Made by a program: the position numbers and the translations under genes
Shown here: piece by piece, positions 11,853 to 31,307 of the stretch
How the letters are laid out: the number at the start of each line of letters is the position of its first letter
Numbering within the stretch: position 1 is the stretch's first letter
Assembly: GCA_029834535.1 (NCBI GenBank)
Contig: JAQMWT010000608.1
Span: forward strand, 1 to 53,186
Direction of reading: 5' to 3'
DNA: 53,186 nt
Source of the DNA: Chrysophaeum taylorii
Lineage: Eukaryota > Sar > Pelagophyceae > Pelagomonadales > Pelagomonadaceae
The notes under the pieces: generated by a model
Told to the model about the DNA's origin: nothing
Database searches by the model: none
What the model saw: only the letters and a program-made list of their open reading frames with translations

Positions 11853-11890
<38 letters not shown>

Positions 11891-12078: not shown

Positions 12079-12080
12079 AA

Positions 12081-12732: not shown

Positions 12733-12735
12733 TCG

Positions 12736-14068: not shown

Positions 14069-15522
14069 CTATTTTATTCTCACTTCCGGGTGGCTTTTGT
14101 TGATCCTCTCGCCTTTGACACGAACACCCGGCTCGCTCTTAATCTTCGGTTCCCGATCTCGCTCAGGATCTGGCGGAACGTCCAATTTTGGTTGTCGGGG
14201 GGGGGCAGCAGAAGAAGCGTGAGACGTCCCCGGCTCATCTGTTGCAGGCGGAATCAACGGCACCTCTGGTGGTTTCCATTTGGTGCGATCTTGGAGATCA
14301 TCAGTCGACACCCATCTTACGACACGTGTGCGCGTGTTTAACAGCGGAACTTGTACGCGACGAAGGGTGGTTTCATCGATTTGCAAATAGTAATCAAACG
14401 GTCGGTCTGCAGGACTCAACGCGGACGGTAATGTCTCACCGCTCAGGTGAGAATCTTTGGTCATAGAGTTGTGCAGATCGAGAACTAATAAGGTCATCGT
14501 GTCTGGGGGCACGACGGACGCCAAGTGTTTCAACGAGGTCGTCCTGGAGAAGCCGGCCCAATCAAAATCAAGAGGCATAGTCAGCAACTCCGAAGTCATT
14601 TTCAGATTCAGAGATCTGGAATCGGAACGGTGCGGTCCTACGCGAAGCGGGACACGCGTAGCGGTATAAGCTGCGTCTGTCGCGGCTCGTGATGATCCTA
14701 AATTGTTCATCTGAAGTAAATGTCGTTCGTCGGCGTAGCCAAGCGCGGCGGCGAACTCTTGCTGCATATTCTTTGAAGTCTTTTGAACTGCACGCAAATG
14801 GAGCGGATGGCTGGAAACCAACAAACGCACGCGACACCTCATCAAACTGGGCGTTATGTCGTAAAAATTGACGACGTACACGTAAGGGTGCAAACGTGCA
14901 ACTTAAGAATAATCGAGGCCTCCTGCTCTATCAGCCACACGAAGAAGCCAGCCATCTTGCATAATTTCATCGTCCAGTGGGTAGCGGTGACTCCCTTCCC
15001 AACATCTCTGGAAGTCAAGTTGCACAGAGCGGAGTGTACGCAGGGTGGCGACGCGATACACATCGACGACGACCATTCCGCGTAAGGTAAATAAGATTCG
15101 ATCAACCGTAAGGTTGTAACATAGCGACCACACAGTGTGTGCTGCACCACAGGAATATTCGGAAAATTCTCGCGGTGGATCTGGTTGGCGGTGTCCGACG
15201 CATCGAGTGCTAGCACGACTCGAAACGACGTCCCACACATTTCGTTGGCTCGTTGGAGACCTAAAGTACTGCCTCCGGCTCCACTGAACAGCATCACCAC
15301 CTTGCGATAAGTGATTGGAAGCCATTGAACCTTTTCATATCGGCGGCGGATCTCTGCTTCGGTGATCTCGCGGCACTTCTTTTCATCTTCTTCCGACCGT
15401 CGAGCGAAATCGTCGTCTCTTTTGGGTCGTTTGAGGGAGGACTTGTCCACAGCAGCGGCTGTAGCGTCCTTCTGCGCCGTGCTCAGCAACATCGGCGAGG
15501 GAGAATCGTCGCAGTGCGTCAA
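14069..15522 (-). pseudogene. C5-cytosine DNA methyltransferase domain inside gypsy element 1
   Basis: Frame 15522-14854 gives motif I VVMLFSGAGGSTLGL (residues 75-89), an NFPNIPVVQH block, motif IV ASPPC with the catalytic Cys (residues 158-161) and motif VI LIEQEAS with its Glu. After a frameshift near 14890 the frame 14893-14069 continues with motif VIII RCRVRLLV, a roughly 70-residue target-recognition-like segment with AAYTATR, and motif X HLASVVPPDTM. A Lys/Pro/Glu-rich tail then leads to the RT. The known family reaction is methyl transfer from AdoMet to cytosine C5 in DNA. It is shifted and therefore inactive here, but the catalytic residues survive. Confidence 0.82.
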
Positions 15523-15725
15523 GTGACTAGCGACGGAAACGGTGAAAGAAAGGCCCCCCTTGTCGTACCCTTCTTCACATTCTTTCGCAAGCTCGTTGAT
15601 CGTAGAACGTTCAACTCATCTTCGTACCGAACGATGTCGCCAATTGCGAGAACCTCGCCTTGTGTGACGACCGTCTGCACTTCTTCCGTGGAAGTAACGG
15701 CCACGCGAGCAGCTTGTCTGTCGTG

Positions 15726-16429
15726 CTATTCGTAAGAAGAGCACATCCCTTCGACGACTCCCAGCTGCTCGTTTTCAGCAAACGTAGCGACGAAAACCTG
15801 TCCTTTTTCCATAGGCTTCGACAAAATAACTGGTAAATTGTAATGTCGACCGGGCTCGATTTGAAGCGTGCGCGCAGCGTAAGCAACTACTTCTCGCGCG
15901 GCTTCTCCCGGAGCTGGGGAGAATTTGGTCGTAGAATGTCCCCGCGTAGCCAAGGCCACCGCTCGTTCCGGCAGCAGGCTGCGGAGATCTTTAATCGTGC
16001 TCAAACGAGCGTAAACTCGAGTCTTGACCAGGTCGAGACTCTGCCGAAAGGCATCGTGTCGAGGATTGTAAATCGGCACGGTTATCGGGTATCGATCGTA
16101 AGCAGATCGAAAGGTCGCAATGGTGCGTCGACTCGTTCACCCTTGACTTTAATCTTCTTGCGCCCGTAGACGACTTGGGTTCGATAAAAATAGATCCGAT
16201 CGTGGGGGTAGTCCACGACGGCTCCTAAAACTCGGATATCGCGCCCTCCCAACAGGAACAGATAGTTGGTGTCGGCCACAATAGCGACAATGGGGGCGGC
16301 GATGTTGTCGGCGAGAGCGACCCGGATCGCGATCCAACGATAAATCGTCGTCGTATTCAACCCCGATCCGTACAGCTTGCGCTTAATCGGAAGCTCGCCT
16401 TCATCGAAAATCAGCTTATCTTTGGCCAA
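15726..16429 (-). pseudogene. gypsy protease-like domain, C-terminal part, and following beta-rich region
   Basis: 16429-16082 continues the protease-like fold after an in-frame TAG: KRKLYGSGLNTTTIYRWIA, then LLGGRDIRVLGAVVDY, corresponding to the retropepsin ILGxDxL-xxxxAxIDY end. 16079-15726, in another frame, contains LQIEPGRHYNLPVIL and GQVFVATF and LGVVEGMCSS. A matching region in element 2 reads RIDPGRTNNIPVKL, FVATAPSVEHLGVV. This second module is conserved between elements but I cannot name it. Confidence 0.65.
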
Positions 16430-18394
16430 CTATCTGACCATTTCGCGGCAAATACAAGAAACATCTGCCATTCCATCGACACCGATGGTCGTCGAGAATT
16501 CCGGTCCGTCACGATTCCTGTAAATGTGACCGGCCATAAACGTAAGAGTGCCCGTGTCCAAACAACGGAGGGTAACCAAATCATCTTCGATCGTCTTGCC
16601 ATCTCGCGGCGTCGACGAAGTGTGAGAACATTGGGCTCTGACTCGCTCGTCGCCGGGGTTGGGCCTCGGCATCGCGGCTTGAGCTCTCGTATCATCTATT
16701 GTCGGCGTCATCGACGCAGCGCTCGCGGTAGCCTCTTTATCTGGTGGCTTCCGCTCTTCCTCCATGACAATTTCGGCGGGAATCAGTGCTGGTAGGGGAT
16801 CCCGATCTTCGTTGTTCTCGGAAGCAAAGGACCTCTCCCATAACTCATTCATTTCGTCGTTCCAGAATGCATCCGTTGATTCATTCGTCATCGGTTGATC
16901 ATCACCGTCGTCGGCGATCGTGTCCGCGTCGGCTGCGGCTTCGAATCCGCAGCTGAGCGGTTGTTCTGGTGGCTTCTTTAGCAAGAAGTTCCGAGTTCTC
17001 GTCCACCAATCCTGCAGATTCCACGTCGGTTCAACTTCGTCCAAATTGAGAACGCTGCTAATCTTCTTCTTACATCCATCTTCTTTGGTCGGGTTCGGCT
17101 CGACTCCGGCAACGCTGTCACTGCTCTCTTCTTCTGGCGGTGACAAATCCGGGCGTTGCTCAATCGGAGTAGCGACCCTTTCGTCTTCGGATCGTACACG
17201 TAGCCTCTCGTCCGACGCACTATGCGATTTAATATCCTGTTCTTCCGGCGGCGTATCCGTGGCTCGGTCCGTCGTAACCGAAACCGTTTCGGGGGGGTCC
17301 GCAGGAAAAGACGGCGTCGTCCCCGACGTCAACTCTATCGTAGGATCGTCGTCTGCAACACTCGCGATGGTCATCGTCTCGTCCGTCGAATGATCATCCG
17401 AGCTAAAACTGCAGAAATCCATGTCTGGCTCACAGACAGTTCGGTCGCTAAAGGTCGTCCCTGGAGGTTCCACGGATAAGCCGATAGCGTCGAGGGCTTC
17501 CTCGTCAAAAACAAACGGTGGGTCGTCCGTGGACGACTCGTCAAGTAACGTAATCGCGGACACTGGTTCACAAGGTGTAGCTTCTTCGTCTTCCGAGTCT
17601 GAATCGCCTTCCCAGTATCGTGGAGCTTCGAGTTCATCGCTCGACATCTGTTCACAAATCTGTGCCAATGACCGACGATCGGTCAGCACGTCGTGGGGTG
17701 GCTCGTCCATCAGCGGGCGAGCAAGATCGTCGAATGCGGCCGCGGCAAGGGCGTCGGCTGCGTCGTCGGGGCGGGTGTCCGTGTTCGGGAACACCATCAC
17801 TCCTAATGGTAGCTGTTGACCGCAAGGGGTCGTAAACGCGAGCGTAGCGCTCAAAAAACCCAAATTATATTGGTGTCGGCCTCCGTCGTATTCGTCGTCG
17901 CGCGATCGGCGTCGTCTGTGCCGGCGCGAACTTCGACTGGGGCTCTTGTTATCTTTGTCTCTCTCTGGCGTCAGTTCGGCAGGTCCTAGTACCTCGGGAT
18001 AGTCCCTGTTGGCGACTGGTGCTCCCAAGCCTATCCGAATTGTCTCAATCGTCTCGTATATCGAAACATCGACACATGCGCCGTCTTCTTGCCAAAACTC
18101 CGACCAAACGTAAATTAACTCTCCGTTGGCGAATAAATCCATGCCTCGGGGTCGGAATCGCACTTCTTTCCGCTCTGGCGGTTTCTTCCTCAGGAAACAG
18201 TGAGCTCGTATCCATATCGTCGGAACGCTCATCTTCCTCTTATCCATGCTGATCGTCCCATCCAAATTCGATTCCGGGCGGCAGCTATACTCATCCCTCA
18301 TAGTATGTTCGGGATCTTTCTTTATCACATAACCATCATCGTGTGCAGGCTGAAAATCTTTGAACTCGTCGTTCGTGAGTAATACGCCCGGCAT
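16430..18394 (-). CDS. gypsy Gag/linker and protease-like N-terminal region
   Basis: A 654-residue frame, strongly acidic (many DDD/EEE and SSDD runs), ending with the N-terminal half of the protease-like domain: RCLDTGTLTFMAGHIY, then IGVDGMADVSCICREMV, then a TAG. The Asp of DGMA lines up with retropepsin D(T/S)GA, but Gly-Met replaces Thr/Ser-Gly. No zinc knuckle or capsid block like that of element 2 is visible, so the Gag part may have been lost or be very diverged. A basic SR-rich patch lies near residue 155. Confidence 0.55.
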   Translation of the reverse strand: MPGVLLTNDEFKDFQPAHDDGYVIKKDPEHTMRDEYSCRPESNLDGTISMDKRKMSVPTIWIRAHCFLRKKPPERKEVRFRPRGMDLFANGELIYVWSEFWQEDGACVDVSIYETIETIRIGLGAPVANRDYPEVLGPAELTPERDKDNKSPSRSSRRHRRRRSRDDEYDGGRHQYNLGFLSATLAFTTPCGQQLPLGVMVFPNTDTRPDDAADALAAAAFDDLARPLMDEPPHDVLTDRRSLAQICEQMSSDELEAPRYWEGDSDSEDEEATPCEPVSAITLLDESSTDDPPFVFDEEALDAIGLSVEPPGTTFSDRTVCEPDMDFCSFSSDDHSTDETMTIASVADDDPTIELTSGTTPSFPADPPETVSVTTDRATDTPPEEQDIKSHSASDERLRVRSEDERVATPIEQRPDLSPPEEESSDSVAGVEPNPTKEDGCKKKISSVLNLDEVEPTWNLQDWWTRTRNFLLKKPPEQPLSCGFEAAADADTIADDGDDQPMTNESTDAFWNDEMNELWERSFASENNEDRDPLPALIPAEIVMEEERKPPDKEATASAASMTPTIDDTRAQAAMPRPNPGDERVRAQCSHTSSTPRDGKTIEDDLVTLRCLDTGTLTFMAGHIYRNRDGPEFSTTIGVDGMADVSCICREMVR

Positions 18395-18924
18395 TCACAG
18401 AGCTCCAAAGGCAGTTCATGCGTTATAAGGTTCTTCACCTCTTCCGCTTTCGTATTCATTTTCTCGGCCGTTTCACTCGGCCTATCATCCACTCCATCGC
18501 TTAGAATATCGGCAATCGCCTCGTCACTAAAAATGTCGGCACGCGAAATGTCTGCCATCGTCAAAAAGAACAAAACATATGCAAAAACGTCTGCAAAACC
18601 ATCTGCAATCGGTTCGTCGGGGGGGGCTGCAAAAGAAGAAGGCGTCGTCCCCGACGTCATATCTGTCAAGAAATGGCCACCAAAGGGCACGTGACGTTCG
18701 ATGGGCGTGTAAACAGGTGCGCGGTTATCATTCGAGGTAATCCTCTGCGACGCATCGTCGATCGATCGTGGAGACGAAGTGTCATCCACTTGAATGTCCG
18801 GAGGTAGACTCATAGCATCGAGCGTAGCAGCGGCGGGTCCATTCCTTTGGGCGTCATCGGCTGCGCGGGGCTCGTAAATCGGATTCACACATAACTCCGG
18901 CGCGTCGTCGAAACGAAGGGTTGT
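18325..18924 (-). pseudogene. Acidic linker of gypsy element 1 polyprotein
   Basis: A 187-residue frame, Asp/Ala/Pro-rich, without recognisable domains. TSGTTPS near 18650 recurs in the downstream frame near 17320, so part of the linker may be an internal duplication. A stop near 18935 and a frame change near 18390 bound it. Confidence 0.4.
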
Positions 18925-18933
18925 GTTGGCTGA

Positions 18934-19640
18934 CTACAAATCATATCGTGCCACCAACGGTGACACCGGGTCAGAAGCGGTTGTTGGCTTCGGCCCGTAG
19001 TTTAACGACGCTTCGGTCAGATTCTCCGATCCGGTGGGGATTTTGGTTTGGGTGAGCTCCTTCGACTTGGTTTGCTCTTGCTCGTAGTTTAACGACGTTT
19101 CGGTCATCTCGGACGACTCGTCGTCGTCGTCGCGCGGCTTCCTAACTTTCGCTCGCGTTCGCGTGGGCGGCGGTACCTCCGAGGGTCGGAATTCTCCCTC
19201 AAGACTGCTCGCTCGCCTCGAGCGACTCGGCGTACGCAATTCGTCCATCTCGCGGGTCAACCATCGTACTTGCTCGTGTATCTTATCTAATCGAGCGTGT
19301 GCGTGCCGCAGTTGCTCTTGCATTATCTTTATCTTCTTCTGGTGTAGCCATTCACGCCGTATCTCTTCTTCTTCTATCAGCTGAAGGAGGGTTTCTTGTG
19401 CGCGCTTATTTTCTCGGCGTATCTCGCGTAAATGGGCTTTGTGAATCTCTGCAACGTTCGGTGGTTCATCATCTCGCGCACGTTCCTGATGGTCTGCCGG
19501 TTGTCTCGCCGGCGGCGCCCTCGGCGGTTCATCGCCGTTGTAGTTCAGCTCTTCTTCCTCATCATCATCATCATCATTCCATATCGGCTCTGGCTCGTTC
19601 TAATCGGCCGAGATCAGAGCGGGTCCAAAATGGTTGAGTC
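18934..19640 (-). pseudogene. gypsy element 1 N-terminal coiled-coil region with two TExSLNY motifs
   Basis: Frame 19323-18934 begins with a heptad-like helix (MQEQLRHAHARLDKIHEQV), a basic SR-rich patch, and an acidic DDDDESSE run. It then has TETSLNY (19084-19105) and TEASLNY (18997-19018) about 29 residues apart. Upstream to 19640 the minus strand continues Glu/Arg-rich. Element 2 has a comparable coiled coil at its N-terminus (31606-31370), so this is the equivalent of its Gag N-terminal part. Confidence 0.5.
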
Positions 19641-19675
19641 GTCGTTGTTCTCGTGCTCCTTCGACTCTGGGACTT

Positions 19676-20054
19676 CTACTCGTCCACGACACGCGTAATA
19701 TCGTCGTCGCGTGCGTCTTCCACCGACCGATCTATCAGTCCGGTGGGCGGCAGAATTCGTCTCTGCCCGGCAATCAATGCCTCAGTGAGTTGCGATCTCA
19801 CTCCGCTCGCCTGCGGCAGCGGTACCCGGGTTGCGCGTCGGCTAGAACCGAATCGCGCGTCGTCACCTCCGACGACTAACGTATCCGGCCGGGCAACTTT
19901 CCCACGGCAATGGTCCTTCTGGAACTCTTCGTCGGCGCGCTTGATCAGGGCGCGCACGGCTTGTCCGGACCGTGTAGAGAATGCAAGATGCACTCGTCCG
20001 CTGCGACCGACATGGTCGCTCGAATCTCGTATTCCTCCACCACCTGTGGCTTTA
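19676..20054 (-). other. gypsy element 1 leader / 5' end of gag region
   Basis: One minus-strand frame (20134-19676) crosses from the LTR into the interior and is Arg/Ala/Asp-rich. I recognise nothing. It is probably the leader and start of gag. Directly inside the LTR there is no clear TGG primer-binding site, so the exact LTR edge is uncertain. Confidence 0.35.
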
Positions 20055-20694
20055 GGACAAATTAGGCCTACCTGGCGCGCCTTCGAATCTAGGCTCGCCG
20101 CTCGCGTCCGTGCCCTTGCCCTTGATGGAGTCACTGGACGAGGAAGGCCGTTCTAACTAACTAACTAACTTCAGACCTCTCCCGAGCATGGGAGCCAGGC
20201 CGGACCGACAGGAGCCAGTCCGGAATCACGGGCCTGTAGACGAGGAGCGCCGAAAGGTCGGTCGGCGGAGAGTGACCATCAAGCTTGTCGCCATGCGACG
20301 AGGAGACCGCGATGTGACTGACAACCAACTCGTCGATAACCTCCCGTCTTCGCCCCCCGGCCATACCCCGCCCCACTGCGAACGTTCCGGCTGCCAACCG
20401 GCCCGCCCGGGAGGCGAATAGGTGCCAACCTACGCCGGGAGGGCGGATGCCCTCGCAAGGCTCAGGATTCATGAGGCACCGTTCTCTCGCCACACAACCA
20501 CAAACAACTTCCGTGCCTGGTCCTCACAACTTGAGGATCGGCTGTTGCTTTATGATTAATAACACTTGAATCACAGAAATCAGGGAAGATTATGTCATAG
20601 AGAAAATTGACATCATCAGAACGGAGTAGGGTGCCCCTGATAAGGGGGGCCCTAGAAGAGGGGTAAGCCTTAGGAGGCGGGAGTCCCCGCCACA
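20055..20694 (-). repeat. 5' LTR of gypsy element 1, split by a SINE
   Basis: Without the SINE (20155-20478) and one 7-bp target copy, about 309 bp match the LTR at 49572-49897, including CTTGAGGATCGGCTGTTGC and CAGAACGGAGTAGGGTGCC. Read on the minus strand it starts TGTGGCGG. The edges are taken from where the two copies stop matching. A GGCGxGCC-TTCGAAT-GGCTCGCC hairpin lies near the inner edge in both copies. Confidence 0.75.
20155..20478 (-). mobile_element. SINE family A copy 4 (reverse), inside a gypsy LTR
   Basis: A 5'-truncated A copy in reverse orientation. CCGTTCT flanks it at 20148-20154 and 20479-20485. The uninterrupted LTR at 49660-49680 shows the empty site (GGCCGTTCTCCCGCC), which confirms both the insertion and the duplication. 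Confidence 0.9.
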
Positions 20695-20733
20695 AGCCCG
20701 TCACCTGACACTGTCAAGTGCTGTCCCTGCGTC

Positions 20734-20960
20734 GAAAATTTCATTTTCGCCATGACCCCCCCCCCACCACCACACCACCCCCTCTCTCTCTCTCTCTCTC
20801 TCTCTCGCTAAAACACACTACGTACACGCTCAAGAAGCCCGTCACCTGACACTGTCAAGTGCTGTCCGTGCGTCGAAGGAGACAGGACGCACAGAGGACA
20901 ATCACTTCTACCACTGCAACAAAGGACTCCGCCCAGGTGACAATACATTTTCTCTCTCTA
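20734..20960 (+). repeat. Left direct repeat (LTR candidate)
   Basis: Matches 23364-23572 closely except for the length of the C and CT runs. It is followed by TCTCTCTAG and a leader that reaches the ORF at 21127. Confidence 0.6.
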
Positions 20961-21126
20961 GGTTTGGGCCCTTGTCACAGTCGCGGAGTCCTTTCACCTC
21001 GCGTTACTCGGAGACAATCGCTCGCTCGACGTCCCGACCTCGACAGGCTATCGAAGTTCCCTTCGACGCCACCCGCCCAACTCAAGTCAAGCCAAGATCC
21101 CCACCAAGTCATCATCCTCGCCCAAG

Positions 21127-22887
21127 ATGTCTCGCGGCAACCAAGATATGCGACGAGAACTCGAACAACTGAAACAAGAGCGTGATGACTTGAAGAAAGA
21201 TCACACTCAAGATATCACTGACCTGAAGCAAGAGCACGCTCGAACTATCGCTCAACTCAAGCAAGATCAAGCCGCACGCGACAACGCACGCGACCAGCAA
21301 TTCCAGCAGCTGCAGAACCAGCTCGCCACTTTTACCGGCGGAACCCCTCCCGCACCCGCTCCAGCGAGTACACCTTCACCCACCACCCCGGACCCCACCC
21401 CCAGCACGTTCACAAGTCAAGACCCACAGACCCCAACCACGTCCCGCGACTCGCAGCACAAGATGTCGCGCACGCAAGACCACGACCAAGACCCGCACCA
21501 AGCGATCGCACCAGTAGCAGGCGGTTTCGCCGCCGACCATGCCGCCGACCATGCCGCCGACCATGCCGCCAACGACGCGGATCTCGACGACGACGACGAA
21601 GAAGATATCGACGACGATCAACTCGACGCACTCGCCGCGGACTCCGCCGCCCACCGTGCCCGAGTAGCCGCCCACCTCGATCTGTCTCGGTAGCTGTTCA
21701 AGCAGCTACATACCCCACTGCAGTTCGCCGCTGCCTCAGCCGCCAGCAGCGCCATGCTTAACCAGCTCCACCTGCAGCGGGCCAAACGGCTCGACGCCAT
21801 TTACAGCCGAACCTCCCCTTCAGCCGCCGCAGCTCCTCCCGATGTTGCCGCCGCTCCCGCTTCACCACCACAAGCCCCGACCACTCCGGTCACAACACCA
21901 CGAGCCCCGACCACTCCGGTCACAACACCACAAGCCCCGACCACTCCGGTCACAACACCACAAGCCCCGACGACCCCGGTCACCGCACCGACCGTCCCGC
22001 CAGCTCCTCCAACTATAGCCGCCGCTTCTGCACCATCCACACCTCTGACCACTCCAGTAACACCACCCAAAGCCACGACCACCCCGGTCACCGCACCGAC
22101 CGTCCCGATCGTCCCACCGATCATCCCGGTCGTCACCCCAACCACAATCCCACCTTCCTCTGCCTCTCCAGGCACCACCCCATCACCATCACCCTGTTCG
22201 CTTTCCTCGCCACCGATGTCGAACACACCACCACCACTCCACACTCAAGTCCCCATCTCCGACACCACTGCCATTATTACCCCGGTACATGGCACACTCC
22301 TCTCCGAAGACCAACGCCTCCACCCGCGCAACTACGCCACCTATGGTTGTGACGGCCCTGGCAACTTCTCCGACACCACCACCCTTCCTCCCTCCTCTAT
22401 GAACCCCGAATTTCCCTACCACGCATTGATCGCCACTCAAACCGCACTCGCCAGCGCCAACGCCCGCCTTGACGCCGAAGCCCGCGCTCACAACGAAACC
22501 AAATCCGATCTCGCCCAAGCAAAAGCTCATCTTTCCGCCCAAGAAGCCTCCTTCGCGATTATCCACGACACCCACCGAGCCCAGGATGCTGTTCTTCAGC
22601 AAATCCCCAACTCCCGTCAACTGCGTATCCACCCGGATGCTCCTCGTATCACCCCGCACACCTACCCCATCTACGGTTACGACCCTGGTACACCCCCATG
22701 CACCGACACCATATCCCCACCGACACCACAGCCGCAAGTTGTTCCTTCATCGCCGACCCCTTTCGCTCCAACACCCACTGTCGCTCCGACTCTCCATTCC
22801 GACCCACGTTCCTCTTCCGAGGGCGTCAGCCCGCTCACCCTCTCTCACGACCCACCCCTCTTCCACTTTCCCGGCCCCGGACCCTGA
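21127..22887 (+). CDS. Coiled-coil, acidic, proline-rich protein (two frames in register around a TAG)
   Basis: 21127-21693 gives MSRGNQDMRRELEQLKQERD, a clear coiled coil over residues 5-70, then Pro/Ser/Thr-rich sequence, a tandem AADH repeat (about 21530-21570), an acidic DDDDEE run and DQLDALAADSAAHRAR. A TAG at 21691-21693 interrupts; the same frame continues through LFKQLHTPLQ to 22887. The continuation has tandem TTPVTTPQAP repeats at about 21880-21980 and two diverged copies of a HP-x-x-x-x-Y-x-YG block near 22320 and 22630 around a second helix. It looks like a Gag-like structural protein. Whether the TAG is read through or is a mutation is unknown. Confidence 0.5.
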
Positions 22888-23363
22888 ACCCCGGACTCCT
22901 CATACCATCTCATTCCTCCCACACACGACTCTCCTTCCCCAAAGTCCCCTCCCGACCGCATTCCGTCGCCTCCAACATGTCACCCACCTCCATCTTACGC
23001 CGACTCCCCACTCAAACATACCCTCTTCCCACACAACGGACCCGGCCCCCTTACCACCTACACCCCTCCAGGCCTTCTTCTAGCCGAATCCACCCTCCAA
23101 CACCTCACCACCCGCATCACCCACCCCCCATGATTCGAACTTTCGGCCTCATACAGCCTCTACGACGAAGACCACAACTACTACAACGCACCTTCCCCGA
23201 CCCTCCCCCTGATTCCATGGACGACTCCGTCGCCCGCCACCAAACCCACTTCTCACGACCACACCCTCTTCGGCTACTTCCCCGCCGTCCGCTCTTTTCC
23301 TTCTTCGACCTTTTTTTTTGGTCCAGAGCTCCCCCGAGTTCGCTCTGTGAGGGCGTAGAGGTA
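22888..23363 (+). other. 3' part of the non-autonomous element, no clear gene
   Basis: Pro/His/Ser-coding low-complexity sequence in all plus frames. Probably decayed continuation of the upstream ORF plus the 3' untranslated part. A (T)10 run lies near 23310. Confidence 0.35.
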
Positions 23364-23572
23364 GAAAATTTCATTTTCGCCATGACCCCCCCCCCACCAC
23401 CCTCCCCCTCTCCCTCTCGCGCTAAAACACACTACGTACACGCTCAAGAAGCCCGTCACCTGACACTGTAAAGTGCTGTCCCTGCGTCGAAGGAGACAGG
23501 ACGCACAGAGGACAAGCACTTCTACCACTGCCACAAGGACTCCGCCAAGGTGACAACAAATTTTATGTCTCT
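23364..23572 (+). repeat. Right direct repeat (LTR candidate)
   Basis: The partner of 20734-20960. The 194 bases between its end and the gypsy LTR at 23767 contain nothing recognisable. Confidence 0.6.
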
Positions 23573-23766
23573 ATGTATATAGTTTCTGCGGCAGGAAGGA
23601 TTATGCGCGCCGACTTCTTACCTGCTTCGACTGTGCCCTCGACGTCTCGAGGGTGCCGAGCGGGTTGAGGAGCGCTTCCTTCTTGTCGATCAACCTTCAA
23701 ACTGCCCACGAGCCTCAATCCGAAGACTCGTGAAATGATTTATGGTTGAGATTAGTCGATTTGAAA

Positions 23767-23895
23767 GGAGAAAACGCCTGGTGGCGTTACAAATACGTAC
23801 GTCAGGGGTTGAAGTAGAGTCCAGTAAACGGGACGTGGGGTAGAGAGCTCGATAGAACTTGGGGTAAGGATGGCGGTGCAAGGGTTACTGCCACA
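23767..23895 (-). repeat. 3' LTR of gypsy element 2
   Basis: 129 bp. Read on the minus strand it starts TGTGGCAG and ends GCGTTTTCTCC. Directly upstream (plus 23896-23908) is the polypurine tract, minus-strand GCAGGGGGGTCC. Confidence 0.8.
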
Positions 23896-23924
23896 GGACC
23901 CCCCTGCTTTGATAGGAGCTGTCC

Positions 23925-24240
23925 TCAGCGACGGCGGTGGTGCGACCGACGAGAGTTTCGGCGCGGACCGTCGGTGCACGGGACTTGAGTGCGCGTCTGA
24001 TGAGCGCGCTGTTGAGCTTGGAGTTGTTCTTGTTCTTGGCGCGCGCGATGCGCGAGAATATCTTTGACTCGCTGGACGATCGGAGGAGGAACTGATATCC
24101 CCTGGAGCTTGAACCGGGGAACCAGGACGTCGATCTCGTCCGGAGCGAAGTCGGTCACGCAAGGGGTGCACTGAGGTGTTAGTTTCTCGGTGCGGGTTAA
24201 GCTGCGACCGAGTGCCGACTTGATTTCCGGGCTCAGCGTG
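23925..24240 (-). pseudogene. gypsy post-integrase C-terminal tail, element 2
   Basis: Contains CVTDFAPDEIDVLVPRF and VPPPIVQRVKDIL, then a Gln/Arg-rich end. The same block occurs in element 3 (near 50080) and in the deletion derivative (near 43780). It is separated from the integrase frame by a frame change near 24240-24270. Confidence 0.65.
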
Positions 24241-24272
24241 CGACCTTCAAGCGGTGAGGTCGGGTCGAAATA

Positions 24273-25394
24273 TTATGGGTCGTCGCGCGGGCCCAGGTCG
24301 GAGTAAAAATGGAGGGCTTCTCGGTCTTGAAGATCATCATAATCCTCGAAAACCTCGGCGACGTAGAGCTTCTTGCGCCAATCGGGGTCTCGGGCCGACG
24401 GGATTCGGAAGATTGCGAACTTGCCGCGCTCGTACTCGTCGCGGGATCCGGGGCTCGGACGACGGATCGTGGCATCGAGTGCGGGAGGCATCGACACTGG
24501 GGTGATCTGTTGGACCGACACGATTCGCTCTTCGGCGGCTCCGTAAACCGATCGGATCTTGTACGAGACAGGCGACAGACGCCCGGTGATGAGTAAGGGG
24601 CCGTGCCACTCCGGTCGCAACTTGTTTTGGGACAGCGGAATGTACAGTAATACGTGCGAATTGACATTGTATTCGACATCCACGTACTCGGCGTCGTAAG
24701 CGAGTTTCTGCGTCTTCTTGGCATGATCCTGCGCTTCGGCGACTACTTTCGAGTAGTACTGGAAGCTCTGCTTGACTTTCAGTAACGCGTCGGATCGTGG
24801 TCGCGGCAAAACGGGGTCAGGCCGAACCAACAAGGTGTAGTCCGTGGGCAACATCGGCTGCCGGTTCAGGCGCAACATGAATGGCGAGATTTGCGTGCCG
24901 GGTATGAACTTTCGGTTGTAGCAAAACGACACGTACCGGACGAGGGCCGGCCAGTCGGTGATGCTGCGACTCTCGAGGCGGCGGGCCCGGAGGAACGCCT
25001 TGAGGAGTCGATTGACTTGCTCCGCGGGGTTCGCTTGGGCGTGGTATGGTCTCGGCGTCCTGTGCTTTCGGCCGGCCCGGAACGCTATGGCGTCCTCCTG
25101 CGGCGGGTTCGGCCCTCTGTCTGCAACCAACTGATCGTTGAGCGGACGTAAGTCGACGGCCGCGCGGAGAGCGTTAGATGTCCCGAGCTCTGCCCCTTTC
25201 TTCGGAAGCATGAAGATCGGGAACCCCCGAGGGGAGTTGGCGGGTCTTACGACTCCGTCTCGGCGCCATTCGGAAATCTGCTTGCGAAGATATTCGATCT
25301 TGGCTGGAGCGAGGCGGTACGGCGACGTCTCGATGGGCTTTGGGTTCGCGTCTTTGAATCGGAGGGACACCGGTCGAGGGTCTACGGTCCTCAT
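24273..25394 (-). pseudogene. In-frame fusion of gypsy RT N-terminus to integrase C-terminus
   Basis: Residues 1-90 are the RT fingers region (SLRFKDANPKPIETSPYRL, GFPIFMLPKK, AAVDLRPLNDQL). Then, across a junction at about 25065-25115, the sequence becomes integrase: PYHAQANPAEQVNRLLKAF with the third catalytic acid (Glu), LNRQPMLPTDYTL, and the GPY/F-like module WHGPLLITGRLSPVSYKI. RT palm, RNase H, the integrase zinc finger and both integrase Asp residues are missing. The frame stays open across the deletion. A stop at 25417 separates it from the upstream part. Confidence 0.75.
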
Positions 25395-26018
25395 AATGGG
25401 ATCGATGGAGGCCCAAGATTATCGAACGCAGTGCGCCAACATGAGTTTGGCATCCTCGTCCAAGTGCGAGTTGTTCGGGATGCCTAGCTCGCCGACTACC
25501 TTGTCCACTTCTTCCTTCGTGGGGTTCTTGACGACCATGGCCTCGTCCCCTTTCAGATGGTTAGGCTGTTGCGGTAGCGGCGCGCCGTTTTTGTCCCTTG
25601 GTGCGTTTTTTTATGGTACGTCAAACCGTTCCTCGTACTTGAACCGGACGGGCTCTTGGTCTTGTCTCCCGTTGGTTTCTTAGTTCGTTTTTCGTCCGCC
25701 TTTCGAGGTCGCGTCGTTTTGGCTCGCGCGGGTACCCCCTCGGGAAGATGAGTGCATCGTCCCCGATGCAGCGTGCTTCGGAGGGGTTAGAGGAAGATCC
25801 GGTGGTTAACATTTCGCTTTGTCCTGGAGGTCGCGGTTGGGCACCCTGCGGATTACGCGAGTCGAAACGCTCACGAGGGCGCTCCGAGGCTCGGGTGCGG
25901 TGACTCCGGTGCGGGTGCGGTCGGAGGGGGCGCGCTCGATGATGTATGTTTCGGAAGGTGCGTCGGTGGGTGCGACAACGTTCGGGCGCGCGATTCCGAT
26001 GTTGCGGAGCGTGGGCGG
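25395..26018 (-). pseudogene. Methyltransferase-to-RT linker of gypsy element 2
   Basis: The minus strand encodes a region matching element 1 between methyltransferase and RT (near 25560 the equivalent of APLPQQPNHLKGDEAM, then a LGIPNNSHLDEDAKLM block). Stops near 25417 and a frame change near 25620 break it. Confidence 0.55.
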
Positions 26019-29000
26019 CTACGCGTTGTGGGCGTCGAGGACTATGTGCGCCATGGCGGACGGGGGTATCACGGCTGCTATATGCTTCATTCGGTCCGTG
26101 ACTGCGAGTTTACCCCATGCGAGATCGCGCGGCATCGTGAGAGCCTCCGCGAGCATCTGTAGTCTGAGCGCTTTGGTGTCCGAAGGCGTGGGTCCTGTTC
26201 GCACCCCGTTCCGCGTGATGGTGTATATCGGTGCCGTGGCATCTCGCGCGCATCCAAAGTTGTTGCGCTGGATGAGAGGCTGCGACGGGTCGAGTCCGAG
26301 TTTGGCGGCGAAGGTATCCTGAATAGTGCCGCACGTCTTGGGACGTCGGATGAGCTGAAGAGGCCAGCGCGTGATGATCATGCGCCGACGGGTACGCACG
26401 AGGTCCGGCGTCGTCGTCCATAGATCGACGACGGTGATGAAACCTTGCCGCCGCGTGATTTTCGAGCGGAAGGAAGGTTCCTGCTCGATGATCCAGCGTC
26501 CGACTCCGGAGAGCTGGAAGAGCTTGATAGTCCAGTTGGTCGCGGAGACTCCTTTCCCGGCGTCGCGGGCCGTAAGGTTGCACAAGGCGGAATCTACGCA
26601 TGGTGGCGTGCCAACGAAAAGTGCTGTGGGCCATAGGCTTTCATGCAGGTAACCTTTGACCAGAGATAAGACCCTGTCGTACCGACCGCCGAGGGTGTGC
26701 TGGACGACAGGTACTCCTGGAAAGTTCCTCTCGTGGACTTCTTTGGCGGTGTTGGGTGCGTCGATGACGAGCGCGACCTTGTACGCGGTTCCGAACCATT
26801 CATTGCTCCGGTAGATACCCTGTGTGCCACCTCCAATCCCGCCGAAGAACATCACGACGGGCGTCACGTTCTGAGGGATCCAGGAGAGCGCCTGGTGCTT
26901 GTCGATGATCGCTTGTTCGGCGGCCCGGGATTTCGGCGGTTCTTGCGACTGCGCCTTCGGGGCTTGCAGACGCGGCTTGATTGAAGACGTTCGAAATGCT
27001 TGGCCGTCTAGTTTACCGGGGTCTGGAGTTGGGTAACTGGTGACCGAGACCGTGAAGGAGGCCGTGCCCCCGGGCTCGCTCTCGTGCGCGTTTCCAGGGT
27101 CGGCGCTTGGCAATGGGGTTGTCACCTGAACTTCTTCTTGGCAGTTGACGATTCCCCCCCGTGCGAGCACTTGATCTGGGATGATCGACCTCGGTGTGTC
27201 GTCCATCGACGACATGGCCACTGCGGCCGCGGTCGGGTCGGAGCGGTCGCACGTCGAGCAGGTCCCGGCGACGACGCCGAGGTGCTCCACGCTTGGCGCG
27301 GTGGCGACGAAGGCTTCTCCGGGCTTGGGCGCTTGACTCAGCTTGACCGGGATGTTGTTGGTTCGACCGGGGTCGATGCGCTGGGAGCCGGTCGCGAACG
27401 CTCGGATCTCGGGCGCGGGCGTTTTCGGGTCGTTGCTCGGCATAGACGGGTCCTCGGCTAAGGTTACGGCGGATGAAGCTCGCCGAGGAGGTGGCGAGAG
27501 GAGATCCTCTTCAGTGAGCAGTGGTGGCAGAGCTCTCTTGCCACCTTGACGCCGACTCTGCGGCATCGCTTGCCATCGAAAACCGCAAATCGGCGCTACG
27601 ACGGGGTGTGTTTCGTCTGCTGCCCGATAAAGGATGGCGGGAGACCGAACGATTTCTCCAGCGTATGGGAGCTTCCTCATCTGGAAGACTGTTTGGGTTC
27701 GCGAGAAGGAAATTCGGTATCGGGGATAATCCACGACGGCGCCCACGGCTCGAATGTCGCGGGCTCCCAGCAGAAGTTGTTTCTTGGTGTCTGCTATGAT
27801 TGCGACTACCGGTACGGCCATTTCGTCCGAAACGGATACTCGCAGGGCGATCCACTCTGAAGTCGAGGTCGTGTTCTTTCCCGATCCGAAGAGCGTTCGC
27901 TCGAAAGGCAGCTTGCCGCTGTCCAGCAACATCCCTCGCCTTCGCATTAGGCGGGCGGGGTCGTGACAGACGTAGGTGACGTCGGCCATTCCGCCTACAC
28001 CGATCACCTTGGCATACGATGAGTCGCCCGGCTTATTGAACACGTGGATGGGCATGAACTTCAGGCTACCGGCTTCCCAGCAGCTAAGGACGCGCAGGTC
28101 TCTGCCGATCGTTTCGGCGTTGATCGAGGCGAAAGAGGAGTGCATGCACATGGCTTCGTCCTCCGTCCCTGCCATCGGCATCGATACGTGCGCGCGTCCC
28201 GCGAAGAATCGGTGGGCTCTCGACCACCAGCTCTGTCGGCTCGCTCGCGGATCGGCGGGCAGCTCTTGGATTCTCCGCTGCAACCGACGGCCTCTTTCTT
28301 CGCGCTCTCGAGCCGGGAAGTCGGGAAATCTTCGTTCCTCGTCTTTCCGAGGCTCTTTTCGTTCTTCGGGAGGCTCGGGCTCCTTGTCGATTACCTTCTC
28401 TTCGTTTTGGAGAGGGAGGGCCCCTGCCACCGTCTGGGGTCTTATTTCGGTTTCGTGCGGGGGGTCGGTTCGCTCGGGACTCTTCTTGTTCCAGAGCCGC
28501 TTGACTCTCGTCCCCCTCCTCGACCCTCGGCGCGGAGGTCTTAATCTGGCGCTTCTTAACTGCGTGCGGGATGCTTTCGATCCGTGAACTTCCTCGAGGC
28601 TTCTCTCTTCCCGAGCTTCGCGCGGGGGTCCCCTGTCGGTTTCGGCTGTTTGTTCCGATCTTTCGCGCGGGGGTCCACTGTCGGTTTCGGCTGTTTGTTC
28701 CGATCCTTCCGGTTCCGGCGTGTTCGGTTTCTGGGCGGGTTCCTCGACTGGTGGCGACTCGCTGTTTCCGCTGCCGATATCGCGGCCGGGTCCGCGGCGG
28801 GTACCCCATTGGGGAGAGTGCGGTGTCGCCCTCGACGTTGAATCGAAGTTGATATCGTTCTCGGGCGGGCTGCCGGCGGCGTCATGGTCGTTTCGGTCGG
28901 GCGCGTAGCCGTCCGCATCCGTGGGGTTTTGTCGGCGCGGGTGCGCGAATGCGTTGAGAAGGGCATCTGGTATTGCTGTGGCGGTTGCGGGTCCGCTCGG

Positions 29001-31307
29001 ATGACTGAATAGGGCGGGGAACAATTCTCCGGGTTGACTCTCCCGTTCTTCCGAACTGCCGCCGTCCGAATCGGTGTCATGGTCGATGAGGGCGGTGAGT
29101 TCGTTATCGACGGCGAGCGGATTTGCCTCCGGTGATCCCGTTCGGTTAGCGTCGGGGTCGGAATCGTCGTTGCTGTCATCATCGCTGTCGGAGTCAGACG
29201 GGTGCTCACTGGTCGCTTCCGTTCCCGAGTCGGCGTCGTCATCACTGTCGGACGTGTCATCGATGAGGTCGGGGCCGTCGGCGTCCGAGTCGTGCGGGAC
29301 TTCCGCAGTTGCGCCGCTGATGCGACTGGCCACATCTTCCTCCTGAGCGCGCGAACTCGAGTCTTCGGCGTCGTCGTTGACGTCGGAGGGTGTTGCGTCC
29401 GACTCGTGCGGTCTCCACTGGATGTCCTCGATGTTTCGGCGTCCTGGCTTAGCCAGAGACGATAGCGCGTTCTCATCTTGACCGGGCCGACCGTCATCAG
29501 GCGCCTGGGCGGTGAGTGATCGAGGGTCGACCCCCGGCTCGGAGTCGACGTCGGTCTCGGGGAGCCCGGCGTTCTCTTCGTTCCGGAGCGGGGCTCCTAG
29601 CAAGGCGAGCTTTGCCTGTGCGATAGCGGTCTCCGCTTGCGTTTTGTCCAGCTCGTCCTCAGGGACCACGTCGAGAGCCGTCATGGAGTCGAACGTCGGG
29701 TCAGCCGGGGCGGCCAGCGCGCATGGTTTCGGCGGCGGGTCGCTCGATGGTGTCGCTGGGGGCACGGAGGACGGCCGCAAGGCTCCGAAAAACTCGCCGT
29801 CGGTGCTGCTGGCCGATCCGAGGAGCGTGGCGTCGGAGACGGAACATCCGGATGCTCCGCCGCTCGATTGAGGTCCAAAGAAAGATCCTGCGTAATCCAT
29901 CGACGATTGCGTACTCGAGCTCGAGGAGTGTCGAGCTGCGAGTATGCGCTCGACGATCGCTTCAACCTGGTTGGCCTGAACGGCGCCAGCATCCGACGAA
30001 GCGGGGGCGTCCGCATTCGCTGGCGGCCGTCGGTCGCCGTTGGCTCGTGCTGCTTTCTGTTCTCTCTTCCAGGCTCCGTAAGGGATGGGTTCTTGTCCCT
30101 GCCGTCGTCGCGCTTTCATCGCTTGCTTATACGCGTTCGGGTGAGGGCATCGGAGGGAGCCATCGGCATTTCGTGTATGGTCGATCTTGTAGTTTCCGCA
30201 GTCGCACATCTTCTGCATCCAGGCGTCCTTGTTTCGCATACTGGGCCTCGGGTCCTCGTCCACCTCGGGCTCTTCCTGTTGCGTCGCGTATGCGCCGGGT
30301 TTCCTGCGGTCGCGCGGGTCGCGCGGCGGCGGGTTGGTGGTCTTGCCGGGGTGCGCCTTCTGCCACGCGTCGAGCTGGATCTCGTGCCGGAGGATCAGGC
30401 TTTGTACCTCGGCGAAGGTGTTGTACTGACTGGGGTGATCGCATCGCGCCATATGCATCTTTTGCTGCAGCTTCGTCGATGCCAGTCCGGCGATCATTTG
30501 GTGAATCATCTCGATGCTATCCACCGACGTACCCGTCAGCGCTGTATAGGCCGTAGCCTCCTTCTGCAGCGACTTGAGATAGGTCAGGACCCAAGATTCG
30601 CCCTCCTTCTTCGGCGTGGTGGCTTGCGTGATGTTCCGGACCTTGTGGAAGGCATCCTCCGGTCGAGGCGCGGGTCGGCAGGCTTGGCGGAGCTGCTGGA
30701 GGATACGCTTGACGTGGGAGAGGCTCAGGTCGCGAAGCTGTCGGATCTGCTCCTTGTACGGCGTCTGGCTGTAGGCGTGGAATTGCAGATAGAACGACTC
30801 GGGGTGGCCGAACGAAGTACACAGTACATCCGCCGCCATTCGCCCTTCCTCCAACGTCGGTAGCACGGCCTGGCGCACGTCGTCCGCGAGGCCAAACGAA
30901 AGCGAGCTGATGGAATAGTGGTCCTTCGACAACTCTCCGACGATGAGGGCGGCCTCGTGATCGAACTGCCGCTGGTCTTTGCCCTCGATGTCCAGCTTGA
31001 TCATCTCCAGCTTGAGCCGTCGGTGCCTCGGGGCAGCCGCGTCCTCGTATCTTCGGGAAGCCAGGGCGGCGGATGGCCCTTGGCCCGTTGCGGCTCTCAC
31101 CAGTGCGGCGACGATCTTGTCGGCTTCCGTGGGTTCCTTCTTTTCCTCGTGTGCTCGCGGACGATTCGCCTGCTCCGTGCGTCGGACCGGCGGTTCGCTG
31201 CTCGGCGGTTCGGAGTCGGATTCGTCGAGATCCGATCCGCGAGGCGATTCGGGCCGCGGTGGTCGCGCTCGCTGCTCTCGACGTGTCTTGAGCGAGCGCA
31301 TTTCCAC
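26019..31307 (-). CDS. gypsy Gag-protease-like-DNA methyltransferase polyprotein
   Basis: A 1762-residue frame. Residues about 70-320: retrotransposon Gag capsid-like helices (SFYLQFHAYSQTPYKEQIRQ, ESWVLTYLKSLQKEA). Residues 360-400: a Cys/His cluster CDCGNYKIDHTRNADG..CP. Residues about 460-1000: acidic and Pro/Ser-rich linker. Residues about 1090-1230: protease-like, with IGVGGMADVTYV and LLLGARDIRAVGAVVDY. Residues 1484-1762: C5-cytosine methyltransferase, with motif I VVMFFGGIGGGTQGI, NFPGVPVVQH, motif IV GTPPCVDSA with the catalytic Cys, motif VI IIEQEPS, motif VIII RTRRRMII, a TRD with PIYTITR, and motif X HIAAVIPPSAM. Product: virus-like particle protein plus an enzyme that may methylate cytosines in DNA. 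The N-terminal coiled coil lies in another frame upstream (31606-31310). Confidence 0.82.
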   Translation of the reverse strand: MEMRSLKTRREQRARPPRPESPRGSDLDESDSEPPSSEPPVRRTEQANRPRAHEEKKEPTEADKIVAALVRAATGQGPSAALASRRYEDAAAPRHRRLKLEMIKLDIEGKDQRQFDHEAALIVGELSKDHYSISSLSFGLADDVRQAVLPTLEEGRMAADVLCTSFGHPESFYLQFHAYSQTPYKEQIRQLRDLSLSHVKRILQQLRQACRPAPRPEDAFHKVRNITQATTPKKEGESWVLTYLKSLQKEATAYTALTGTSVDSIEMIHQMIAGLASTKLQQKMHMARCDHPSQYNTFAEVQSLILRHEIQLDAWQKAHPGKTTNPPPRDPRDRRKPGAYATQQEEPEVDEDPRPSMRNKDAWMQKMCDCGNYKIDHTRNADGSLRCPHPNAYKQAMKARRRQGQEPIPYGAWKREQKAARANGDRRPPANADAPASSDAGAVQANQVEAIVERILAARHSSSSSTQSSMDYAGSFFGPQSSGGASGCSVSDATLLGSASSTDGEFFGALRPSSVPPATPSSDPPPKPCALAAPADPTFDSMTALDVVPEDELDKTQAETAIAQAKLALLGAPLRNEENAGLPETDVDSEPGVDPRSLTAQAPDDGRPGQDENALSSLAKPGRRNIEDIQWRPHESDATPSDVNDDAEDSSSRAQEEDVASRISGATAEVPHDSDADGPDLIDDTSDSDDDADSGTEATSEHPSDSDSDDDSNDDSDPDANRTGSPEANPLAVDNELTALIDHDTDSDGGSSEERESQPGELFPALFSHPSGPATATAIPDALLNAFAHPRRQNPTDADGYAPDRNDHDAAGSPPENDINFDSTSRATPHSPQWGTRRGPGRDIGSGNSESPPVEEPAQKPNTPEPEGSEQTAETDSGPPRERSEQTAETDRGPPREAREERSLEEVHGSKASRTQLRSARLRPPRRGSRRGTRVKRLWNKKSPERTDPPHETEIRPQTVAGALPLQNEEKVIDKEPEPPEERKEPRKDEERRFPDFPAREREERGRRLQRRIQELPADPRASRQSWWSRAHRFFAGRAHVSMPMAGTEDEAMCMHSSFASINAETIGRDLRVLSCWEAGSLKFMPIHVFNKPGDSSYAKVIGVGGMADVTYVCHDPARLMRRRGMLLDSGKLPFERTLFGSGKNTTSTSEWIALRVSVSDEMAVPVVAIIADTKKQLLLGARDIRAVGAVVDYPRYRISFSRTQTVFQMRKLPYAGEIVRSPAILYRAADETHPVVAPICGFRWQAMPQSRRQGGKRALPPLLTEEDLLSPPPRRASSAVTLAEDPSMPSNDPKTPAPEIRAFATGSQRIDPGRTNNIPVKLSQAPKPGEAFVATAPSVEHLGVVAGTCSTCDRSDPTAAAVAMSSMDDTPRSIIPDQVLARGGIVNCQEEVQVTTPLPSADPGNAHESEPGGTASFTVSVTSYPTPDPGKLDGQAFRTSSIKPRLQAPKAQSQEPPKSRAAEQAIIDKHQALSWIPQNVTPVVMFFGGIGGGTQGIYRSNEWFGTAYKVALVIDAPNTAKEVHERNFPGVPVVQHTLGGRYDRVLSLVKGYLHESLWPTALFVGTPPCVDSALCNLTARDAGKGVSATNWTIKLFQLSGVGRWIIEQEPSFRSKITRRQGFITVVDLWTTTPDLVRTRRRMIITRWPLQLIRRPKTCGTIQDTFAAKLGLDPSQPLIQRNNFGCARDATAPIYTITRNGVRTGPTPSDTKALRLQMLAEALTMPRDLAWGKLAVTDRMKHIAAVIPPSAMAHIVLDAHNA

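What the first reader, a model, noticed from the sequence alone, without database searches (positions are those of the whole stretch)
14069..31307. gypsy retrotransposons carrying a C5-cytosine DNA methyltransferase
Two independent gypsy copies (element 1, 14069-15522; element 2, 26019-26858) have a methyltransferase-like domain at the same place, between protease and RT. Seen directly: motif I (LFSGAGG / FFGGIGG), the NFPxxPVVQH block, motif IV PPC with the catalytic Cys, motif VI Glu in IEQE, the R-x-R motif VIII, and a motif X-like VxPP block. In element 2 it is fused in one 1762-residue frame with Gag and protease. The copies differ clearly in sequence yet conserve the catalytic residues, so the domain has been under selection as part of the element. 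I recall that methyltransferases have been reported in retrotransposons of a few algae and dinoflagellates; whether this lineage is the same is open. A likely role is methylation of the element's own or host DNA to modulate silencing.
Basis: partly seen in the sequence, partly recalled or inferred. Interest (0 to 1): 0.92.

Follow-up and report, generated by a model that had tools for sequence, protein, structure and literature searches.

The report
Jumping genes carrying a DNA methyltransferase
In the marine alga Chrysophaeum taylorii, large families of retrotransposons carry their own highly unusual cytosine methyltransferase, a further and separate example of mobile elements carrying an enzyme of the kind that cells use to mark and silence them.

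Summary
Both window elements carry a ~293-residue C5-cytosine-methyltransferase-like domain behind a retropepsin-like domain. It is very divergent: Pfam finds it marginally in element 1 and not in element 2, but a profile of 22 copies matches DNMT2 far above shuffled controls, and signature residues persist in nearly all of 60 loci. The host is the pelagophyte Chrysophaeum taylorii. At least 204 places of the genome carry this Ty3/gypsy-borne domain, under purifying selection (median dN/dS 0.055 between two subfamilies). Neither window copy is intact. Element 1 has a frame break inside the MTase, stops in RT/RNase H and no integrase. Element 2 belongs to a replicated deletion form: 13 of 23 loci of its subfamily share one junction removing RT core, RNase H and integrase core while Gag-protease-MTase is kept. 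An unrelated MTase sits at a like place in Copia elements (128 places, 79 with a Copia RT downstream). MTase-bearing retrotransposons are already published (dinoflagellates, Klebsormidium gypsy), so this is a new variant of a known kind. Most likely it methylates the element's own cDNA; activity and substrate are untested, no CpG-deamination scar is seen, and an RNA substrate remains a serious rival.

The parts
14905..15342 (-). element 1, MTase N-half (motifs I-VI)
   Evidence: PF00145 E=3.1e-4 for the ORF 14857-15615
14465..14902 (-). element 1, MTase C-half (motifs VIII-X) in another frame; frame break between the halves
   Evidence: own-genome MTase profile E=3.6e-79 for the ORF 14072-14902
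12073..13941 (-). element 1, reverse transcriptase and RNase H, one frame with two in-frame stops
   Evidence: RVT_1 and RT_RNaseH Pfam hits; ORF ends; collinear with L069
15555..18100 (-). element 1, Gag-side and retropepsin-like part of the polyprotein, upstream of the MTase; broken in frame
   Evidence: tblastn of the L069 frame, 74-83% identity
11986..11988 (-). element 1: point where similarity to the related copy ends; integrase not found behind it
20040..20694 (-). element 1, LTR-like 5' end interrupted by a ~334-bp repeat insertion (20153-20486)
   Evidence: similar to the 3' end of the copy at 49562 and of L069
26022..31397 (-). element 2, single open frame of 1792 codons: Gag-side, retropepsin-like, MTase
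   Evidence: Gag by position only, no Pfam hit in the frame
27501..28154 (-). element 2, retropepsin-like region (motif GVGGMADVTYV here; GVDGMADV in nearly all relatives)
   Evidence: BLASTP to L069, 40% over 218; motif table; no Pfam hit
26022..26900 (-). element 2, C5-MTase-like domain, 293 aa
25056..25325 (-). element 2, remnant of the RT region (about 90 residues)
25056..25067 (-). junction of the internal deletion (RT core, RNase H, integrase core lost), shared by 13 loci
24066..25067 (-). element 2, integrase C-terminal remnant
   Evidence: 61% to L069 residues 2156-2488; weak Integrase_p58_C, E=0.0097
31744..31889 (-). element 2, putative 5' LTR (146-bp direct repeat, 89%)
   Evidence: TG...CA ends not found
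23767..23912 (-). element 2, putative 3' LTR
49562..53182 (-). third copy of the element 1 family, RT end to LTR-like end with integrase; runs off the window before its MTase; carries a ~360-bp repeat at 52147-52507
   Evidence: 93-98% DNA identity to L069; Integrase_H2C2 and rve Pfam hits in the ORF 50798-51895

Best explanation
The domain is a very divergent C5-cytosine methyltransferase that a Ty3/gypsy lineage of the pelagophyte C. taylorii captured long ago and kept as a regular part of its polyprotein, between the retropepsin-like domain and RT. Shown here: presence, position, motif conservation, purifying selection, high copy number, recent spread of the family, and retention in deletion forms that lost RT and integrase core. 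Inferred: the polyprotein is cut in the particle, the enzyme stays with the element's own nucleic acid and methylates newly made double-stranded cDNA before integration, so that a new insertion arrives already marked, which may hide it as self or tune its silencing; the host DNMT5-like enzyme could then keep the mark. Likelihoods: genuine C5-MTase-fold domain 0.95; catalytically active in at least some copies 0.75; own cDNA as main substrate about 0.4.
For: Homology. Signature residues in 60 loci (the 30 best-ranked of each of two searches plus L069, minus L039, which is window element 1; biased to good copies; L057 and L069 are the same place, and L026/L027 lie on near-duplicate contigs): catalytic-type Cys 58 of 59, motif VI Glu 59 of 60, both motif VIII Arg 59 of 59. 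dN/dS on 35 distinct stop-free domains: 0.055 between subfamilies E1 and E3 (105 pairs, dN 0.110, dS 1.953), 0.18 within E1, 0.23 within E2. With stop-bearing copies included for E2: RT-less 0.251 (77 pairs), RT-bearing 0.213 (21 pairs). One related copy (L069) is open over at least 2506 codons with MTase, RVT_1, RNase H, H2C2 and rve in that order. Of 101 RT matches (a capped list), 55 have an MTase place of the equally capped lists 0.3-2.5 kb upstream; 4 of the other 46 were fetched and all 4 have MTase sequence upstream, broken or partial. Eight of the 101 RT rows, L069 itself among them, share the top score and are identical at the protein level, which implies recent spread. The region between motifs VIII and IX is the least conserved part of the MTase between E1 and E3, as expected for a target-recognition region. 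Host: a DNMT5-like gene (MTase plus SNF2) and DNMT2. Published precedent: SymbioDIRS DNMT domains methylate CG de novo in yeast (PMC5890265, section 10 read).
Against: No biochemical or methylome evidence. CpG observed/expected is 1.31 (E1), 1.22 (E2) and 1.12 (window) (printed before that script failed), and C-to-T difference is not raised at CpG (E1 0.032 against 0.025-0.044 in other contexts, E2 0.045 against 0.038-0.059); fourfold sites are mixed: in E1 CG is above CA but below CC on the opposite strand. Motifs VI (EQE in place of ENV) and X (no GN) are unusual. The nearest profile is DNMT2, a tRNA methylase. All 4 RT places fetched because no MTase was listed for them have a broken or partial MTase although their RT is 99-100% identical to L069's, so copies whose RT still reads do not always keep the MTase. 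The structure model is poor (pLDDT 40) and its fold matches are not significant, although Met1 ranks 2nd and DNMT2 4th. In PMC5890265 the tested KnitGypsy-Dnmt3 domain gave no methylation in yeast, which the authors call inconclusive.
Confidence: 0.5

Rival explanations
1. It is an RNA methyltransferase: like DNMT2 it methylates tRNA, for instance the tRNA primer, or the element's genomic RNA in the particle.
For: Of 6 PDB sequences matched at E<=10 the best two are DNMT2-type (E 0.094 and 0.11); a 5-cytosine DNA methyltransferase follows at 1.7 and three are unrelated proteins. The profile match to DNMT2 covers motifs I-IV. No CpG scar.
Against: The DNMT2 CFT motif (invariant in 28 DNMT2-type sequences) is not seen in the aligned copies. 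Only the conserved N-terminal half matches, which does not fix the class; other eukaryotic classes were not compared as profiles.
Confidence: 0.25
2. It works in trans on the host genome: element enzymes add new methylation to host DNA or to competing elements, and the host DNMT5-like enzyme maintains it.
For: Among 57 PF00145 matches over the cut-off, one is DNMT2 and one the DNMT5-like L002; the other 55 carry the MTase found in Copia element L070. High copy number. PMC5890265 discusses genome-wide effects in Symbiodinium.
Against: Intron-split host genes can be missed by the search, and only 123 of 474 candidates were scored. No methylome. Expression unknown. Retention in RT-less forms fits a cis need as well.
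Confidence: 0.15
3. The domain lost catalysis and serves as a nucleic-acid-binding or structural part.
For: Motifs VI and X deviate; no relatives among the candidates scored from a 5.8-billion-protein collection.
Against: Cys, Glu and both Arg are kept in nearly all loci while identity between subfamilies falls to about 45%; low dN/dS.
Confidence: 0.1
4. Chance motif resemblance; not a methyltransferase.
For: Pfam is marginal or silent for the two window copies.
Against: Relatives pass Pfam's cut-off; the profile comparison is far above shuffles; a PHROG methyltransferase family matches L031 at 4.7e-8.
Confidence: 0.02

Closest known systems
KnitGypsy-Dnmt3 of Klebsormidium nitens (de Mendoza et al. 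2018, PMC5890265; section 9 read)
   Same: LTR gypsy element with a C5-MTase in the Pol polyprotein; several copies; key residues kept; Ka/Ks below 0.2.
   Different: Their MTase is in a Dnmt3-related clade of a charophyte; here the host is a pelagophyte and the domain resembles no class clearly (weakly DNMT2). Their repeat structure is described as DIRS-like; here LTR-like direct ends are seen.
SymbioDIRS-Dnmt3 and SymbioLINE-Dnmt of Symbiodinium (PMC5890265, section 5 part 1 read)
   Same: Retrotransposon-borne C5-MTases in large numbers.
   Different: DIRS and LINE elements, not gypsy or Copia.
DNMT2 / TRDMT1
   Same: Best profile match, motifs I-IV.
   Different: No CFT motif seen, motif VI EQE; part of a polyprotein.
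Non-autonomous LTR-retrotransposon derivatives (BARE-2 and LARD-type elements; recalled, not looked up)
   Same: Replicated deletion forms that depend on relatives.
   Different: Here the MTase is kept while RT and integrase core are lost.

Membership tests
C5-cytosine methyltransferase superfamily (PF00145) | significant family profile match | tested here: met
   Relatives L031 27.4 and L041 25.7 bits over the 22-bit cut-off; window element 1 20.7 bits, below it; window element 2 none at E<=10, but profile-profile probability 96.9% to DNMT2, 29 shuffles at most 6.9%
C5-cytosine methyltransferase superfamily (PF00145) | motif IV Pro-Cys, motif VI Glu, motif VIII Arg-x-Arg | tested here: met
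   Cys 58 of 59, Glu 59 of 60, Arg 59 of 59 loci
C5-cytosine methyltransferase superfamily (PF00145) | canonical ENV (motif VI) and Gly-Asn (motif X) | tested here: not met
   IEQE and ASVVPP/AAVIPP; canonical forms recalled, and ENV and GN visible in the DNMT2 alignment
C5-cytosine methyltransferase superfamily (PF00145) | methyl transfer to cytosine | not testable with these tools
   needs an assay
Ty3/gypsy LTR retrotransposon | domain order RT - RNase H - integrase | tested here: met
   L069 frame; the third window copy has RNase H-side sequence and integrase
Ty3/gypsy LTR retrotransposon | LTRs with TG...CA ends and target-site duplication | tested here: inconclusive
   direct repeats and a shared 5'/3' terminal sequence found; ends and TSD not established
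KnitGypsy-Dnmt3 type element | MTase falls in the Dnmt3 clade | tested here: inconclusive
   no DNMT3 chain among the 6 PDB sequences matched at E<=10, DNMT2 was; no class tree built
DNMT2 | CFT motif in the target-recognition region | tested here: not met
   C, F, T invariant in A4; no CFT seen in A1 rows

The most novel reading that the evidence does not exclude
In one genome two retrotransposon superfamilies, gypsy and Copia, have independently captured unrelated C5-MTases at the same spot behind the protease. In the gypsy family a mobile form has lost RT and integrase core yet keeps Gag-protease-MTase, so the MTase behaves as a cis-required function of the particle rather than as cargo. 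In a host whose only other detected DNA-type C5-MTase is DNMT5-like, these enzymes may be the source of new cytosine methylation.
Probability: 0.2. Interest if true: 0.85.

Novelty: new variant of a known kind. Interest (0 to 1): 0.62.

Why it matters
It adds a stramenopile to the lineages with MTase-bearing retrotransposons, with a separate, unusual enzyme, and suggests that two superfamilies in one genome took up different MTases at the same place. Repeated capture at one place, and retention in forms that dropped RT and integrase core, make it testable what a retrotransposon gains from carrying a methyltransferase. The alga has a 71-Mb assembly made from laboratory cultures (PMC10366177, listing and passages seen), so methylome and cDNA tests are realistic.

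Tried and rejected
Structure: AlphaFold2 with only three window-own rows gave pLDDT 40. The strand-helix order looks MTase-like, but the fold search had no match at E<=0.001; I do not rest on it. Homologues: none among long polyproteins at E<=0.001 (1985 candidates) or with the profile at E<=0.01 (the 8000 candidates sharing most words scored); none confirmed in IMG/VR for either MTase type. The Copia domain as a single sequence had no PDB hit at E<=0.1; as a 4-row profile it had bacterial cytosine methylases, HhaI among them, at E 0.03 to 0.33. CpG scar: not found. A recombination break between MTase and RT of subfamilies E1 and E3 was considered, because RT is far more alike; the sliding identity shows no sharp break. 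Monophyly of RT-less copies: not supported on the MTase tree (RT-less and RT-bearing copies mixed) although the junction is shared; exchange between the two forms is my inference. A DNMT class tree was not built, for want of reference sequences and because of the divergence.

Full report
What was checked. The finding names two gypsy copies with a methyltransferase-like domain. Pfam gives DNA_methylase E=3.1e-4 (20.7 bits, cut-off 22) for the ORF with the first half of element 1's domain and nothing for element 2. Copies elsewhere in the genome do better: L031 27.4 bits and L041 25.7 bits, though L013, of element 2's subfamily, has no methylase hit; PHROG methyltransferase families 4.7e-8 (L031) and 9.3e-7 (L041); dcm TIGR00675 about 1e-3, far below its cut-off. 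A 22-row profile led by element 2 matched a 28-row DNMT2-type profile over motifs I to IV with score 77 and probability 96.9%. The same profile with its columns shuffled reached at most 27.5 in 29 trials, and reversed 19.9. The domain is a real but very divergent member of the C5-MTase superfamily.

Where it is. The window is contig C608 of a 70.8-Mb, 697-contig genome. A host DNMT2 gene of that genome is 100% identical to CTAYLR_008533 of Chrysophaeum taylorii, on a contig of the same length, 102313 bases. The published assembly is 71 Mb on 702 contigs, and a term search of its main text finds no 'repeat', 'transposon' or 'gypsy' (PMC10366177, passages seen). It is a pelagophyte alga.

Anatomy. 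A related copy in contig C5 (locus L069, 9 kb) has one open frame of at least 2506 codons; the genome search reports 3063 for the whole frame. It carries the MTase (residues 873-1165), RVT_1 (1440-1604), RNase H, H2C2 and rve integrase domains. Element 1 is collinear with it from 18100 to 11986 at 74-92% protein identity, but it has a frame break inside the MTase, two in-frame stops in RT/RNase H (ORF ends) and no integrase was found behind it. The domain upstream of the MTase looks like a retropepsin by position and by motif GVDGMADV, with an LLG-RD block behind it; no Pfam protease was found. In the window's element 2 the Asp of that motif is Gly; in its subfamily 19 of 20 readable rows keep Asp, the exception being this copy.

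Element 2 is a deletion form. Behind its MTase only about 90 residues of the RT region remain; the frame then jumps to the integrase C-terminus. Of 23 loci of this subfamily examined, 13 share this junction at the same place, 8 continue into RT (L026 and L027 among them lie on near-duplicate contigs), and L011 and L030 could not be judged because the alignment ends early (junction alignment of 20 of these loci). A form without RT core, RNase H and integrase core has thus multiplied, presumably using enzymes of intact relatives, while keeping a Gag-protease-MTase frame (1792 codons here, 1885 in L015). MTase sequences of the two forms are mixed on a FastTree tree, which suggests exchange between them; that step is inferred.

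Numbers. Protein searches of the own genome gave 150 matches for element 1's half-domain and 135 for element 2's domain, both capped (150 of 888 and 134 of 902 candidates scored). Together they mark 204 separate places, a lower bound that includes some near-duplicate contigs; none of the 23 element 2-type places is in the list. Of 101 RT matches (101 of 1298 candidates scored) 55 have one of these MTase places 0.3-2.5 kb upstream on the same strand. Four of the other 46 were fetched: 4 of 4 have MTase sequence upstream, in each case broken over frames, partly inverted or partial. The other 42 were not looked at.

Selection. On 35 distinct stop-free domains (38 of 61 fetched loci passed the filter; the rest had stops, frame breaks or partial cover and were dropped), Nei-Gojobori dN/dS had medians 0.055 between subfamilies E1 and E3 (105 pairs), 0.179 within E1 (210), 0.228 within E2 (36) and 0.071 within E3 (10). 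For E1 against E2, synonymous change is saturated (173 of 189 pairs unusable; the rest 0.179). For E2 with stop-bearing copies included: 0.251 among RT-less (77 pairs), 0.213 among RT-bearing (21), 0.230 between them (91). Pairs are not independent, and the filter for open frames favours low ratios. RT is more conserved than the MTase, and the stretch between motifs VIII and IX is the least conserved part of the MTase between E1 and E3.

A second MTase. Of 57 PF00145 matches over the cut-off in the genome (123 of 474 candidates scored), one is DNMT2 (L001) and one a DNMT5-like gene with an SNF2 domain (L002/L072). 54 overlap places found with another MTase domain, and the last, C216, matches its profile in two pieces. 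That domain sits in a Copia element in L070: a 1952-codon frame has a DGGAS protease-like motif, the MTase at residues 303-603, an integrase trace (rve, below cut-off) and then RVT_2 (1.6e-38). The domain occurs at 128 places, a lower bound, and 79 of these have a match to L070's RVT_2 region 2-6 kb downstream on the same strand; for that tally I used 116 rows of the listed RT matches (of 153 found), so it too is a lower bound. Its profile is nearest to bacterial cytosine methylases such as HhaI (E about 0.03), and it shows no similarity to the gypsy-borne domain (hhalign probability 0.3%). Two captures of different enzymes at the same position behind the protease is the simplest reading; very deep divergence of one capture is not formally excluded.

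Does methylation show? CpG is not depleted (observed/expected 1.31 and 1.22 in the two families, 1.12 in the window). Differences C-to-T at CG are 3.2% of sites against 2.5, 2.8 and 4.4% at CA, CC and CT in E1, and 4.5% against 3.8, 4.1 and 5.9% in E2. At fourfold sites of the MTase, CG is 3.1% against 3.5-9.9% on the coding strand in E1; on the other strand it is 4.2%, above CA (1.1%) and below CC (16.9%); E2 is likewise unremarkable. This speaks against a long-lived, deaminating CG mark on these copies; it does not exclude methylation of short-lived cDNA, other contexts, good repair, or an RNA substrate.

What is known. MTase-bearing retrotransposons were reported for Symbiodinium (LINE, DIRS) and for a gypsy family of Klebsormidium nitens (PMC5890265; abstract, sections 9, 10, 11 and part 1 of section 5 read). 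PMC12344493 (passages seen) speaks of DNMT3 members within Copia and DIRS elements. In my searches (open-licence PMC only, listings seen) I found no report for pelagophytes. The diatom paper PMC9998398 (passages seen) reports DNMT5 and DNMT6 in pelagophytes, with no mention of element-borne enzymes in the passages shown.

Verdict. Real, abundant, selected, and a new variant of a published kind. Mechanism is the open part: I favour methylation of the element's own cDNA, with RNA methylation as the main rival.

Noticed in passing
L070 (G000:C96:60501-69000) and 128 places genome-wide: A second, unrelated C5-MTase, in Copia elements, between a protease-like motif and integrase/RVT_2; Copia RT found downstream at 79 of the 128 places.
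   Followed up: yes
window 4446-4817, 10050-10402, 11500-11871, 20153-20486, 46354-46719, 52147-52507: A ~330-370-bp repeat in six copies, about 97-98% alike, with an (AACT)n-type end and, at three copies looked at, what look like 7-9-bp target duplications; it sits inside element 1's LTR-like end and inside the RNase H/RT part of the third copy. SINE-like or MITE-like.
   Followed up: partly
window 31881-32732, 37135-38100, 44418-45396, 45409-46354: Another repeat of about 850-970 bp, four copies in both orientations, 89-93% alike.
   Followed up: no
window 41-3553, minus strand: A Copia remnant (RVT_2 trace, integrase similarity) only distantly related to the MTase-bearing Copia; no MTase was recognised in it.
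   Followed up: partly
L072 (G000:C621:12500-22499): Host gene with C5-MTase and SNF2 domain, DNMT5-like, open over at least 2011 codons.
   Followed up: partly
G000 contigs C10/C297 and C25/C521: Pairs of contigs give nearly the same match coordinates and scores, probably haplotypes or duplicates; counts are inflated slightly.
   Followed up: no
E1 family, MTase fourfold sites: On the coding strand, C-to-T difference is highest before T in E1 (9.9% against 3.1-3.9% for other next bases) and in E2 (6.0% against 3.0-3.2%); on the other strand it is highest in CC context (16.9% and 12.4%); unexplained.
   Followed up: no
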